Source: Collimonas arenae
GTDB taxonomy: Bacteria; Pseudomonadota; Gammaproteobacteria; Burkholderiales; Burkholderiaceae_D
Length of the DNA: 64,000 nt
Direction of reading: 5' to 3'
Assembly (NCBI RefSeq): GCF_001584165.1
Contig: NZ_CP013233.1
Span: 1,240,001 to 1,304,000 of the forward strand
Shown here: piece by piece, positions 1 through 47,989 of the stretch
How positions within the stretch are numbered: the first letter of the stretch is position 1
Layout of the letters: the number at the start of each line of letters is the position of its first letter
Made by a program: the position numbers and the translations under genes
Notes under the pieces: generated by a model
What the model was told of the DNA's origin: nothing
Seen by the model: the letters and a program-made list of their open reading frames with translations, nothing else
The model's database searches: none

Positions 1-856
1 TCCAGTCCTGTGCCCAGGTGGTAACGTTGCAGCCGGCGGTATTGAGGCTCGCGATTGCGGCCAGCAATTCTTCAAGCTGCAAGGCGGTAACAAGAATCTG
101 CAACCGGAAAAATCGAACTCCTTCACGCTGGGCATGGTGATCGAGCCGATTCCATCGGTGACAGCTTCGGTCGATTACTTCAACATCAAGATCAAGAACC
201 AGATCTCGACGATTTCCGAAGGCGACATTTTCAACGACCCAACCAAGTACGCAGCTGACTATGTGCGCAACCCCGATGGTTCATTGAACTACGTCCTGAA
301 CACCAACGTTAACCTGGGCAACGTTCATACCCAAGGTTTCGACCTGGGATTCAACTGGCGCTTGCCTAAGACTGCATGGGGTAACTTCGGTCTGTCCCTG
401 GATGGTACTTATGTCACCCAGTATGACTATCAGTCGGAAGCCGGCGGTCCATACCTGAACAACCTGGCTGTATATGGTGGTGGCGTGGGCACAGCAGGCG
501 GTGTGGTTTTCCGCTGGCGTCATACAGCCGGACTCAACTGGAACAATGGTCCATGGGCTGTTTCGCTGCAACAAATCTACACAACAGGCTATCGTGATCA
601 AAACGGTGTCAACGTTGTCGCTGCGTATAAGAACCATGAAGTCAGTTCCTATACACGTTACAACCTGTCGGGCACCTACACTGGCTTCAAGAACATCACC
701 TTGACTGCTGGTATCAAGAACCTGTTCAATACAAACCCACCGGCCTCCAACGTAACCGACAACTTCCAATATGGTTACGATGCCGTTACGGCGATGTCAT
801 TGGTCGTGCGTTCTTCGTCCGCGCCAATTATCAATTCTTCTAATAGCGGGATTTGA
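1..856 (+). CDS. TonB-dependent outer-membrane receptor, C-terminal part (frameshifted near its end)
   Basis: This is the last ~280 residues of a TonB-dependent receptor; the frame is open from base 2, so the gene starts outside the window. It shows alternating beta-strand segments, the GNKNLQPEKS stretch common before the last strands, and a late IKNLFNTNPP motif typical of these barrels. The final strand is wrong in this frame: after GYDA (base 784) the protein reads into non-barrel sequence and stops at 856. In the frame entered by restoring one C, the end reads RYGDVIGRAFFVRANYQFF with a stop at 841-843, the aromatic-ended last strand expected for BAM-mediated assembly. The substrate is not evident. 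The following tonB-exbB-exbD-exbD genes would energise it. Confidence 0.9.
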   Translation, partial: PVLCPGGNVAAGGIEARDCGQQFFKLQGGNKNLQPEKSNSFTLGMVIEPIPSVTASVDYFNIKIKNQISTISEGDIFNDPTKYAADYVRNPDGSLNYVLNTNVNLGNVHTQGFDLGFNWRLPKTAWGNFGLSLDGTYVTQYDYQSEAGGPYLNNLAVYGGGVGTAGGVVFRWRHTAGLNWNNGPWAVSLQQIYTTGYRDQNGVNVVAAYKNHEVSSYTRYNLSGTYTGFKNITLTAGIKNLFNTNPPASNVTDNFQYGYDAVTAMSLVVRSSSAPIINSSNSGI

Positions 857-883
857 TTGGCTTAAGCACTTTTCGTAAGTGGG

Positions 884-911
884 CCACCTGGGAAGTTTTC
901 CAGGTGGTTTT
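884..911 (+). terminator. Rho-independent terminator after the receptor gene
   Basis: A perfect 8-bp stem, CCACCTGG/CCAGGTGG, with an 8-nt loop is followed by TTTT, 28-70 bases past the receptor stop codon. It separates the receptor transcript from tonB. Confidence 0.75.
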
Positions 912-1197
912 GGCTTTTCGGAATGCATAAGCTCATCACAATGTTTCTGCTGTTTTATAAGGCATTGATGTAGTATTTACGGACGCGCAAAAATTAAACG
1001 ATAGCAAACTGAAGATTCTTTTATATAAGTTGCAATAAAAGGTTTCAGGGCAACTCATCCAGGTAGCAATCAGTCAGTAATAGCAGCAACTGCATGATTG
1101 GTACGTTTTTTGCGTAATCGTAGATCGGCAAGTAGTTCACTCATCAGATTGCAAGCAGTTTTAGCAATTGAATAATGTAGTATCGGAGGAAAGAGGC
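912..1197. other. Intergenic region upstream of tonB
   Basis: AT-rich gap without a convincing open frame. It must hold the tonB promoter, but I see no clear -35/-10 pair and no Fur-box-like sequence. A good ribosome site, GGAGG at 1185-1189, lies 8 bases before the ATG at 1198. Confidence 0.5.
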
Positions 1198-1851
1198 ATG
1201 GATTTCACGCAGGATGGGAGGAACCCTTCCAAGAATGTAGTTGGCATCAGCGTGGTTGTTCTTTTGCATGCGGCTCTTGTTTATGCACTTGTTACAGGGC
1301 TAGCTCGTAAAGTTGTCGAAGTGATTCAGCAACCGGTCGAAACCAAGATCATCGAGGAGATCAAGCCACCGCCGCCGCCACCACCACCGAAACAGGTGAT
1401 ACCGCCGCCGCCAAAATCGGTTGCGCCACCACCACCGTTCGTACCTCCACCAGAGGTAAAAGTAACACCGCCGCCGCAAGACAACGTGATTGCAGCAGTA
1501 ACCAATGTCAAACCACCGACCAACGAATTGCCTACTTCGGTAGCGCAACCTTCGACGACCGGCGAAGCCGGACCATCGCATACCAGCGCAAAAATTGCTG
1601 GCAATTGCGAGAAGCCAGAGTATCCAAGAACTTCTTTGCGTAATGAGGAAGAGGGTACTGTGAACGTCAAGCTGACCATCGGTGTAGACGGTAACGTGGT
1701 TGATGCTGTAGTTGAGAAGGGCAGTGGTTTCAAAGACCTGGACAGAGCCACATTGAAAGCGTGGAGCCTGTGCCATTTCACCCCTGCCATGGCCGATGGT
1801 AAACCTGTGCAATCTTCTACAAGAATGCAGTATGTTTGGAAGCTGGAATAA
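1198..1851 (+). CDS. tonB: TonB energy-transducing protein
   Basis: TonB carries proton-motive-force energy from ExbB/ExbD in the inner membrane to outer-membrane receptors. The 217-residue protein has a short cytoplasmic N-terminus, one membrane segment at about residues 15-35, a long proline-rich spacer of PPPP runs mixed with Lys/Val (about 50-100) and a C-terminal TonB domain (about 135-217) with YPRTSLRNEEEGTV and a final WKLE. I chose the ATG at 1198 because GGAGG lies 8 bases upstream; an in-frame TTG at 1168 would add 10 residues but lacks such a site. Two cysteines in the C-terminal domain (GNCEKP, WSLCHF) could form a periplasmic disulfide. exbB follows after 68 bases. Confidence 0.93.
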   Translation: MDFTQDGRNPSKNVVGISVVVLLHAALVYALVTGLARKVVEVIQQPVETKIIEEIKPPPPPPPPKQVIPPPPKSVAPPPPFVPPPEVKVTPPPQDNVIAAVTNVKPPTNELPTSVAQPSTTGEAGPSHTSAKIAGNCEKPEYPRTSLRNEEEGTVNVKLTIGVDGNVVDAVVEKGSGFKDLDRATLKAWSLCHFTPAMADGKPVQSSTRMQYVWKLE

Positions 1852-1919
1852 ACAGAGCGTAGAACAACTACCTTGTACGTTATCTCAGCAATCTAATTTA
1901 TCAAATTTGGAGTATTAGT

Positions 1920-46297: not shown

Positions 46298-46383
46298 TTA
46301 CTAGTGACCATCGACCTGCCGGTTGACGACAACATGTCGCTGTCGGCGGGGCGATAGAGCTACAGGAAAGAGATCGACGGTTT

Positions 46384-46707
46384 ATGGCAATCACACTGAC
46401 AGAAAAAGCGGCAAAGCACATCAACCGCTATATCGAGCGGCGCGGCAAGGGCATCGGCCTGCGCTTTGGCGTGCGCACGACCGGTTGCTCGGGCTTGGCT
46501 TACAAGCTGGAGTATGTGGATGAGAAGACTGACGAAGATGCCGTGTTCGAGTCGCATGGCATTCAGGTATTTGTCGATCCGAAGAGCTTGCCGTATATCG
46601 ACGGTACCGAACTCGATTTCGCGCGCGAAGGCTTGAACGAAGGCTTCAAGTTTTACAACCCGAACGTCAAGGACGAGTGCGGCTGCGGCGAGAGCTTCCG
46701 GATTTGA
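46384..46707 (+). CDS. iscA: IscA, A-type iron-sulfur carrier
   Basis: A-type carrier of 107 residues that takes clusters from IscU to apo-targets. The three conserved cysteines are visible in RTTGCSGLAYKLEY (about residue 35) and DECGCGESF (about 99 and 101). AITLTEKAAKHINRYIERRG at the start is the typical family opening. It lies 86 bases after iscU, with GGAAAG before the ATG. Confidence 0.96.
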   Translation: MAITLTEKAAKHINRYIERRGKGIGLRFGVRTTGCSGLAYKLEYVDEKTDEDAVFESHGIQVFVDPKSLPYIDGTELDFAREGLNEGFKFYNPNVKDECGCGESFRI

Positions 46708-46822
46708 CGCCATCCTGGCCGGGCTTCGCGATTGTCTGATTGAACGTTGAACCTGTGTCACGATGGATGAGATGGACGACCCAAGCCTGTTGCATTTCAA
46801 CAGGCTTTTGTTTTAATTCAAT

Positions 46823-47338
46823 ATGCAAAATCACTTCGAGTTATTCCAGTTGCCGCAACGTTTCACGCTCGATACATCTGCGTTGGAGCAGGCCTATCAC
46901 GAGGTGCAGAACCAGACTCATCCGGATCGCTTCGTCAATGCCACCAGTGCCGAAAAGCGCGTGGCGATGCAATGGACGACGCGCGCCAACGAGGCTTACC
47001 AGACGCTCAAGAGCCCGTTCAAGCGTGCAGCCTATCTGTGCGAACTGAATGGCGTGGCGCTGGAAGTCGAATCGAATACGGCGATGCCGACAGCTTTCCT
47101 GATGCAGCAGATGGAATGGCGCGAAACGCTAGACGATGCCCGCGCGGAAAAGAACCTGGCCGCCCTGGAGCAACTGGACGAGGAATTACGCGCCGCGCGC
47201 AGGGCCGATCTGCAACGCATTGGCGTTTTGCTGGATGCCGGAGATTTCCAACAGGCTGCGCAATACGTGCGGCAGTTGATGTTCCTGGAAAAATTTGGGG
47301 AAGAGATCGGCAACGCATTCGCCGTTCTCGAATCGTAA
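46823..47338 (+). CDS. hscB: HscB, J-domain co-chaperone
   Basis: J-protein that brings IscU to HscA and stimulates its ATPase. The 171-residue protein starts FELFQLPQRFTLDTSALEQA and has the HPD tripeptide in NQTHPDRFVNA (about residues 32-34) and the helical C-terminal domain (AFLMQQMEWRETLDDARAEK, FLEKFGEEIGNAF) that binds IscU. Length matches E. coli HscB (171). It follows iscA by 115 bases. Confidence 0.95.
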   Translation: MQNHFELFQLPQRFTLDTSALEQAYHEVQNQTHPDRFVNATSAEKRVAMQWTTRANEAYQTLKSPFKRAAYLCELNGVALEVESNTAMPTAFLMQQMEWRETLDDARAEKNLAALEQLDEELRAARRADLQRIGVLLDAGDFQQAAQYVRQLMFLEKFGEEIGNAFAVLES

Positions 47339-47375
47339 ATCACGATACGACAATTATTATTAGCCGAGTACGAAC

Positions 47376-47989
47376 ATGCCTGAAGTCTGGTTATTCCTGA
47401 TCGCCGCAATGACGCTGACCCTGGCCCCGGGCCGGACAATATCTATGTGCTGACGCGCGGCATTGCGCAGGGCCGCAAGGCCGGCTTGGTGGCTGCACTT
47501 GGTTTCAGTTCTGGTCTGATTTTCCATACGATGCTGGCGGTACTCGGCTTTGCCGCGCTGATCAAGGCTTCGCCGCTGGCTTACTCGTTGTTGCGTTACG
47601 CCGGCGCTGCTTACCTGATCTATATCGGTGTGCGCACCCTGCGTTCGCACACCGCAGTACACCTGCAAGGCAATGCCGCACCGCAGAAGCTGTCGCGCAT
47701 CTATTGGCAGAGCGTGATCGCGAATATGCTGAACCCGAAAGTGACGCTGTTCTTCATTGCGTTCCTGCCGCAGTTCGTCAACGCCAGCGCCGGTCATATC
47801 CCAGTGCAGATGTTGCTCCTGGCAGCCGTATTTATTATGCAGGCGCTGGCAATATTCAGTGCGGTTGCCCTGTTTTCCGGCATGGTCGGCGCGTTTTTCC
47901 AGCGCAAAAAAACGGCCGCCACCACTATGAACCGCTTGGCGGGCTGTGCATTTATCGGACTCGGCATTCGCATCGCTCTGCCGCAATAA
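47376..47989 (+). CDS. LysE/RhtB-family amino-acid exporter inside the isc operon (frameshifted)
   Basis: An inner-membrane exporter of about 204 residues with five to six hydrophobic helices. Seen: start MPEVWLFLIAAMTLTLAPGP, DNIYVLTRGIAQGRKAGLVA, FHTMLAVLGFAALIKASP, YAGAAYLIYIGVRTL, NMLNPKVTLFFIAFLPQFV and FIGLGIRIALPQ, a full RhtB/LysE pattern. The frame breaks at 47432: the ATG frame reads APGR and stops at a TGA soon after, while one added C (GGGCCCGGAC) gives the conserved APGPDNIYVLTRG. It lies 37 bases after hscB and 28 before hscA, in the same direction, which splits a pair that is normally adjacent. Export of an amino acid, perhaps cysteine or homoserine, is inference. Confidence 0.85.

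What the first reader, a model, noticed from the sequence alone, without database searches (positions are those of the whole stretch)
784..47432. Five genes broken by one missing base each in a short homopolymer
Near 784 (CCC to CC), 14611 (AAA to AA), 17946 (TTT to TT), 31820 (A7 to A6) and 47432 (CCC to CC) an otherwise intact gene changes frame. In every case adding one base restores a textbook protein: the aromatic receptor end, the Tat signal, the methyltransferase N-terminus, the porin signal peptide, the LysE APGPDN motif. All five are deletions, all in runs, and none is accompanied by other decay, which points to consensus error rather than five pseudogenes. By contrast the prfB frameshift is genuine.
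Basis: partly seen in the sequence, partly recalled or inferred. Interest (0 to 1): 0.7.

Follow-up and report, generated by a model that had tools for sequence, protein, structure and literature searches.

The report
Missing-base errors in a Collimonas assembly
The five genes that look broken are almost certainly whole in the living bacterium: the deposited genome sequence has dropped single bases at many places, some of them in genes without which the cell could not live.

Summary
The window lies in a one-contig 4.72 Mb Collimonas genome, probably C. arenae Ter10 or Ter282 (inferred). At all five sites the window is one base short of aligned relatives: 12/12, 13/13, 9/9, 12/12 informative rows (11 more uninformative) and 17/17. 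It is a property of the assembly. A strict caller finds 31 one-base deletions and no one-base insertion in G000, each seen by at least two reference genomes, in 224 kb; three relatives have 10 deletions and 1 insertion in 703 kb. The deletions favour homopolymers and bring no excess of in-frame stops or of codon-position 1-2 substitutions. They are as dense in blocks rich in essential genes as elsewhere. secY and mraY are found in G000 only as split copies while 12 of 12 relatives are intact; murE is cut short. The GlcNAc genes are riddled with breaks, yet C. arenae Ter10 and Ter282 metabolise GlcNAc (PMC11288634). A living cell could hardly have this sequence, so most or all breaks are PacBio-type consensus errors. 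The prfB frameshift is genuine. No new biology, but the reference needs polishing.

The parts
2..856 (+). 3' part of a TonB-dependent receptor gene (5' end lies outside the window); frame changes at about 782-784
   Evidence: PF00593; one base short of 12 of 12 aligned rows; tblastn frame change with 14 relatives' ORFs; strict caller 2 of 2 covering references
14387..16783 (+). phospholipase C gene body in one open frame; its relatives start at the ATG at 14604, which here is out of frame with the body; change between about 14607 and 14617
   Evidence: PF04185 and PF05506; one base short of 13 of 13; start codon shared by 13 of 13 with 727-731 open codons. Not seen by the strict caller or by tblastn, the leader being too short
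17851..18623 (+). SAM-dependent methyltransferase gene; frame changes at about 17937-17947
   Evidence: PF08242/PF13649; one base short of 9 of 9; 9 of 9 open across, 256-280 codons stop to stop; tblastn with 5 relatives' ORFs
31812..32887 (+). Gram-negative porin gene; frame closes 3 codons after the ATG, at the A6 run 31815-31820
   Evidence: PF13609; 12 of 12 rows with an alignable leader differ by +1 modulo 3, 11 of 23 rows uninformative. Not seen by the strict caller or by tblastn
47376..47989 (+). LysE-type amino acid exporter gene between hscB and hscA; frame changes at about 47426-47432
   Evidence: PF01810; one base short of 17 of 17; strict caller 3 of 3 references; tblastn with 11 relatives' ORFs
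53240..54344 (-). prfB (release factor 2) with programmed frameshift site CTTTGAC at 54266-54260; genuine, not part of the artefact
   Evidence: identity as RF2 rests on the translated sequence and the recalled site, no family scan was run on it

Best explanation
The five broken genes are artefacts of the deposited consensus sequence. The assembler or polisher dropped single bases, mainly next to short homopolymers, at roughly 1.4 per 10 kb of tested coding DNA (about Q38-39), as expected of a PacBio RS II HGAP/Quiver assembly of modest depth. The living strain most likely carries all five genes in frame. Shown here: the deletions, their excess, one-way direction, run bias, lack of companion decay and equal rate in blocks rich in essential genes. 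Inferred: that the genome is C. arenae Ter10 or Ter282, that its consensus came from PacBio reads polished with Quiver only, and that each of the five individual sites is an error.
For: (1) One base short of every informative aligned relative at all five sites. (2) Clean one-base deletions seen by at least two references: G000 31 in 224,371 nt (26 of the 31 by every covering reference), G005 3 in 262,660, G012 6 in 218,934, G008 1 in 221,877; insertions 0, 1, 0, 0; rate ratio 9.7, P = 6e-12. A laxer caller gave 57 vs 14, 24, 15 breaks. (3) Blocks rich in essential genes carry 6 in 44,654 nt against 25 in 179,717 nt in the flanking 464 kb: 1.34 vs 1.39 per 10 kb. The 6 lie in rpoC near its end, secY twice, mraY, murE and typA (named, rpoC by its place after rpoB). 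(4) secY is found in G000 only as two pieces in different frames (98 and 401 aa open) against one 443-aa frame in 12 of 12 relatives; mraY likewise (259 and 208 vs 408 in 12 of 12); murE frame 407 vs 523-580 aa in 12 of 12. (5) Runs touching the gap: at least 3 in 19 of 31 vs 5.0 expected, at least 4 in 9 vs 1.2. (6) In-frame stop triplets against at least two references: 10 in G000 vs 8, 12, 8 in G005, G012, G008; codon-position substitution ratio 0.230 in broken vs 0.217 in intact genes. (7) nagK, nagA, nagB-II, hexosaminidase and transporter genes carry 13 of the 57 lax-caller breaks in 5.6 kb, yet GlcNAc is reported as metabolised by all Collimonas strains tested, ten listed, Ter10 and Ter282 among them (PMC11288634 section 6). 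(8) PMC4690342 Table 1 gives Ter10 78.4% coding and mean CDS 834 nt against 85.4% and 899 for Ter282, the two being 99.97% identical by ANI (PMC11288634 passages); section 25 states HGAP3 and Quiver.
Against: No reads were available, so no site was checked directly. [quoted passage not shown] section 25 describes no Illumina polishing, but I did not see the supplements. The references are fallible: G005 has a clean deletion in infB, G012 has 6 deletions. 12 of 31 deletions touch no run of 3 or more. The deletions are clumped (gaps of 50-1,600 nt around 1388-1394 kb, up to 61 kb elsewhere), which needs a local quality dip or some real decay. Two of the 10 in-frame stops in G000 lie beside such breaks (1354899 and 1387773). 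rpoB, ftsZ, infB and murD are intact in G000, and completeness is given as 99.99%. Of 30 broken flank genes scanned (of 39 listed), 21 had a family and none is an obvious essential gene; 9 had no family. typA is not usually essential and the rpoC break touches only the last 2-3% of the gene, so the essential-gene argument rests on secY, mraY and murE. A protein search for the methyltransferase listed no near-identical intact copy (best 88%), as a sister strain might have given. Strain identity is inferred from size, GC, contig number and genus, not from a name.
Confidence: 0.95

Rival explanations
1. True pseudogenes: the strain is undergoing genome decay and the five genes are dead by real one-base deletions.
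For: Ter10 and Ter282 have smaller genomes (4.7 vs 5.2-5.7 Mb, PMC4690342 Table 1). Broken genes cluster by pathway: GlcNAc genes, and ssuA/ssuD/ssuB one each. None of the 21 flank genes that got a family name is obviously essential. Relatives show a low background of frame breaks.
Against: secY, mraY and murE are broken too, with no intact copy found. 31 deletions to 0 insertions; no excess of stops; no clear loss of codon constraint. The GlcNAc phenotype is reported positive in both C. arenae strains.
Confidence: 0.03
2. Phase variation: some of the runs, chiefly the A-run after the porin start codon, are switched on and off by slippage.
For: The porin leader has an A6 run right after the ATG, and surface proteins are typical targets (recalled).
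Against: The run is 3-7 long in the 12 alignable relatives while the frame is kept, so no long run is conserved. The other four runs are 2-4 bases, short for usual contingency loci (recalled). The same kind of deletion strikes secY, mraY and murE.
Confidence: 0.01
3. A mismatch-repair-deficient laboratory line has truly accumulated homopolymer indels since isolation.
For: Run bias; recent, non-eroded breaks.
Against: A mutator would be expected to give insertions as well as deletions and could not break indispensable genes without an intact copy; 12 of 31 deletions touch no run of 3 or more.
Confidence: 0.01

Closest known systems
Residual homopolymer indels in PacBio HGAP/Quiver bacterial assemblies (e.g. 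Streptomyces albus SM254, PMC4832174, passages read)
   Same: Single-base indels left after Quiver, there nearly all in G or C homopolymers, removed with Illumina reads; pseudogenes called only where reads confirmed the frameshift
   Different: There 205 indels in 7.17 Mb after 262x coverage; here about 570 deletions extrapolated in 4.72 Mb, all clean calls in G000 deletions, and no read-based correction seen
Programmed +1 frameshift of prfB
   Same: Also a frame change inside one gene, present in this same window (54266-54260, minus strand)
   Different: Carries CTTTGAC and an upstream SD-like GGAGG; none of the 6 CTTTGAC matches in the window lies at the five sites
Young pseudogenes of free-living bacteria
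   Same: Frame broken by a small indel with otherwise well-kept sequence
   Different: Would be expected to spare indispensable genes and to include insertions and stops (established knowledge)

Membership tests
Consensus (assembly) deletion error | Excess of one-base indels over related genomes treated alike | tested here: met
   31 deletions per 224 kb vs 10 per 703 kb, ratio 9.7
Consensus (assembly) deletion error | One-way direction and bias to homopolymers | tested here: met
   31:0; 19 of 31 at runs of 3 or more vs 5.0 expected; 12 of 31 not
Consensus (assembly) deletion error | Blind to gene importance: essential genes hit as often as others | tested here: met
   6 in 44.7 kb vs 25 in 179.7 kb; secY, mraY, murE. 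The blocks also hold non-essential genes; essentiality is from established knowledge
Consensus (assembly) deletion error | Raw reads disagree with the written base | not testable with these tools
   no reads held
Consensus (assembly) deletion error | Sequencing method known to leave such errors | tested here: inconclusive
   PacBio RS II, HGAP3 and Quiver for Ter10 and Ter282 (PMC4690342 section 25), though section 5 speaks of a combined Illumina and PacBio strategy; that G000 is one of them is inferred
Pseudogene | Other decay: stops, relaxed codon constraint | tested here: not met
   10 stops vs 8, 12, 8 in relatives; ratio 0.230 broken vs 0.217 intact
Pseudogene | Loss of function in the strain | tested here: inconclusive
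   Published GlcNAc use is positive for Ter10 and Ter282; that concerns the nag genes outside the window, none of the five genes
Phase-variable locus | Long repeat tract conserved among relatives at the switch | tested here: not met
   porin A-run 3-7 in the 12 alignable relatives with frame kept; other runs 2-4 bases as written
Programmed frameshift | Shift signal with the frame change also in relatives | tested here: not met
   relatives read through in one frame: methyltransferase 9 of 9, LysE 16 of 17, phospholipase C 13 of 13, porin 12 of 12 alignable; for the receptor 8 of 12 met the criterion, the other 4 had frames of 755-775 aa but missed the margin at the stop

The most novel reading that the evidence does not exclude
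A minority of the breaks are real: the tight clump over the GlcNAc and neighbouring genes (1388-1402 kb) reflects a recently and truly inactivated block in the sequenced clone, overlaid by scattered consensus errors elsewhere.
Probability: 0.05. Interest if true: 0.35.

Novelty: not a real feature. Interest (0 to 1): 0.15.

Why it matters
The genome looks finished (one contig, 99.99% complete) and stands for its species in the held set, but about 570 one-base deletions are extrapolated for its coding DNA (several may fall in one gene). Gene-content comparisons of Collimonas would be affected. If G000 is Ter10, the published coding density of 78.4% against 85.4% for its 99.97% identical sister Ter282 (PMC4690342, PMC11288634) would be explained. 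The essential-gene rate test used here tells errors from decay without reads.

Tried and rejected
Genuine genome decay was entertained seriously, because none of the broken flank genes that could be named (21 of 30 scanned) looked essential. The blocks rich in essential genes then showed the same rate and broken secY, mraY and murE, so it was dropped. In one search the unfiltered pairwise caller was noisy (124 breaks against G005, many in shadow ORFs; its output was also cut). I rely on the strict caller, which drops ORFs with under half of mismatches at codon position 3, ORFs with fewer than 8 mismatches, identity under 75%, gaps near other gaps and weak flanks.

The search for extra breaks in the window covered 49,403 of 64,000 bases. 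Well-supported frame changes were 782-784, 17937-17943 and 47429 (the last also on the minus strand, from shadow ORFs). Weaker signals were not counted: 46819 (3 ORFs, upstream extension of hscB), 29450 (2 ORFs, gene end), 42876 (2 references, gene end) and single-reference signals at 1886, 25254, 25257, 30611, 38437, 46817, 47347, 48594 and 57554, besides single-reference ones. tblastn cannot see the two short leaders (14.6 and 31.8 kb). In one search the flank method found no match on both sides for 11 of 13 phospholipase C and 27 of 30 porin loci and rejected one porin locus; searches replaced it there (a first try for the porin was off by one base). Protein searches for a near-identical intact copy in a sister strain gave best identities of 92% and 88%, so they settle nothing; one search shows the window's own alginate lyase protein at 100%, on two contigs.
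Full report
Where the window lies. The window is positions 1,240,001-1,304,000 of a one-contig genome of 4,723,987 bases. Its HscA is closest to Collimonas sp. OK242 and OK607 (95%; near-own records may be left out of that list), and 14 genomes of the same genus were searched. GC of 804 kb sampled is 56.7%. PMC4690342 (sections 5, 14, 25 and passages read) reports two complete 4.7 Mb chromosomes with 56.8% GC, C. arenae Ter10 and Ter282, so G000 is probably one of these. 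C. antrihumi, also 4.72 Mb, has 54.6% GC (PMC11288634, section 6).

The five sites. At each site the frame changes and the window is one base shorter than aligned relatives: receptor 12 of 12 rows (13 loci given; 11 genomes), phospholipase C leader 13 of 13, methyltransferase 9 of 9, porin leader 12 of 12 informative rows (23 aligned, 11 with unalignable leaders), LysE 17 of 17 (some of the 17 are probably duplicate strains). Relatives read through in one frame: phospholipase C 13 of 13, methyltransferase 9 of 9 and LysE 16 of 17, porin 12 of 12 alignable. For the receptor 8 of 12 met my criterion; the other 4 have 755-775 aa frames but failed the margin set near the stop.

Is it a property of the genome? 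I compared 464 kb around the window with syntenic stretches of G005, G008 and G012; about 223 kb were covered by at least two of them. A lax caller found 57 breaks in G000 supported by at least two references in 222,710 nt, 51 of them a net loss of one base modulo 3, against 14, 24 and 15 in G005, G012 and G008; supported by all three others: 30 vs 3, 8 and 0. A strict caller restricted to coding-like ORFs and isolated gaps with good flanks, run on these and on the blocks below, found 31 deletions and 0 insertions in G000 (224,371 nt), 3 and 1 in G005 (262,660), 6 and 0 in G012 (218,934), 1 and 0 in G008 (221,877). The ratio is 9.7 (P = 6e-12) and the direction 31:0.

Error or decay? 30 of the 39 broken genes listed were scanned against NCBIfam: 21 had a family, none obviously essential, several in one pathway; 9 had none. 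Real decay was therefore a live option. The test was to look at blocks rich in essential genes. There G000 has 6 strict deletions in 44,654 nt, 1.34 per 10 kb, the same as the 1.39 of the flank. They fall in rpoC near its end, secY (two), mraY, murE and typA. The first lies in the last 2-3% of rpoC and typA is not usually essential, so the weight rests on the other three genes. For secY the family search finds only the two out-of-frame pieces in G000 and one 443-aa frame in each of 12 relatives. mraY is split in the same way (a third, weak hit is a distant homologue also seen in some relatives), and the murE frame is 407 aa against 523-580 in 12 relatives, with no better murE candidate among the 7 G000 hits of that search. 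rpoB, ftsZ, infB and murD are intact, as can happen at this density. That SecY, MraY and MurE are indispensable is established knowledge, not tested here.

Companion decay is missing. In-frame stops supported by at least two references: 10 in G000, 8, 12 and 8 in G005, G012 and G008; two of the ten lie beside breaks in the clumps (1354899, 1387773). The ratio of mismatches at codon positions 1-2 to position 3 is 0.230 in 25 broken and 0.217 in 291 intact genes against G005; paired median differences are +0.040 (broken) vs +0.027 (intact) against G008 and -0.005 vs +0.003 against G012, no clear shift. Homopolymers are favoured: 19 of 31 deletions touch a run of 3 or more (5.0 expected), 9 a run of 4 or more (1.2 expected), 0 of 2000 random draws as high; 12 of 31 do not.

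Outside evidence. Section 25 of PMC4690342 describes one SMRT cell per strain, HGAP3 and Quiver, and a separate Ray assembly of the Illumina reads. Section 5 calls this a combined strategy, so some Illumina correction cannot be excluded, but section 25 describes none; the supplements were not seen. Table 1 gives coding density 78.4% for Ter10 and 85.4% for Ter282, mean CDS 834 and 899 nt, although PMC11288634 reports 99.97% ANI between them (passages). The mean ORF of G000 in my first sample is 917 nt against 982, 1024 and 1044 in G012, G008 and G005, nearer to the Ter10 pattern. PMC11288634 lists N-acetyl-D-glucosamine among substrates metabolised by all Collimonas strains tested, Ter10 and Ter282 among the ten (section 6), although 13 lax-caller breaks, 12 of them net losses, fall in the GlcNAc genes of this sequence. 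PMC4832174 (passages) describes the same kind of residual indels after Quiver. I found no paper that reports frameshift errors in this genome; the searches were only, and listings apart I looked into four papers (the fourth, PMC4911057, passages, gave nothing used here).

What stays open. The deletions are clumped: many within 50-1,600 nt at 1388-1394 kb and up to 61 kb apart elsewhere. A local dip in read depth would do this, but could not be looked at. The absence of a near-identical intact methyltransferase among the listed proteins is unexplained. A single site among the five could still be a true mutation: the background in relatives, 10 deletions in 703 kb, is not zero, though some of those may be errors too.

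prfB. The site CTTTGAC lies at 54266-54260 on the minus strand, preceded by GGAGGTAT, with a short frame from an ATG at 54344 ending in its TGA and 344 open residues in the other frame from 54274.

Verdict. Ordinary artefact, well supported; interest low except as a warning about this reference genome.

Noticed in passing
window 47376-47989: A LysE exporter gene sits between hscB and hscA of the isc cluster; the stretch matches nearly end to end in 14 of 14 same-genus genomes, while in e.g. G016, G018 and G021 (other genera) hscB and hscA match close together without it. Herbaspirillum sp. AP02 (L046) has a LysE-like stretch just upstream of hscA.
   Followed up: partly
G000:C1:1387.8-1393.3 kb (outside the window): Adjacent GlcNAc genes (nagK, nagA, nagB-II, hexosaminidase, transporter) carry 13 lax-caller breaks in 5.6 kb, the densest clump seen, although C. 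arenae strains are reported to use GlcNAc.
   Followed up: partly
G005:C1 about 4416075: A relative's assembly (contig of 5,730,025 bases, C. pratensis) has a clean one-base deletion in infB, open frame 684 aa against 948-950 in the others: the same kind of error in another assembly.
   Followed up: partly
window 20622-21578 (-): Alginate lyase family gene; after a Collimonas humicola protein (86%) the next named hits are from Dyella and Dokdonella (82%), so transfer is possible.
   Followed up: no
window 33856-36366: 2.5 kb without a protein-level match in the relatives' stretches compared; ORFs up to 304 aa, not annotated.
   Followed up: no
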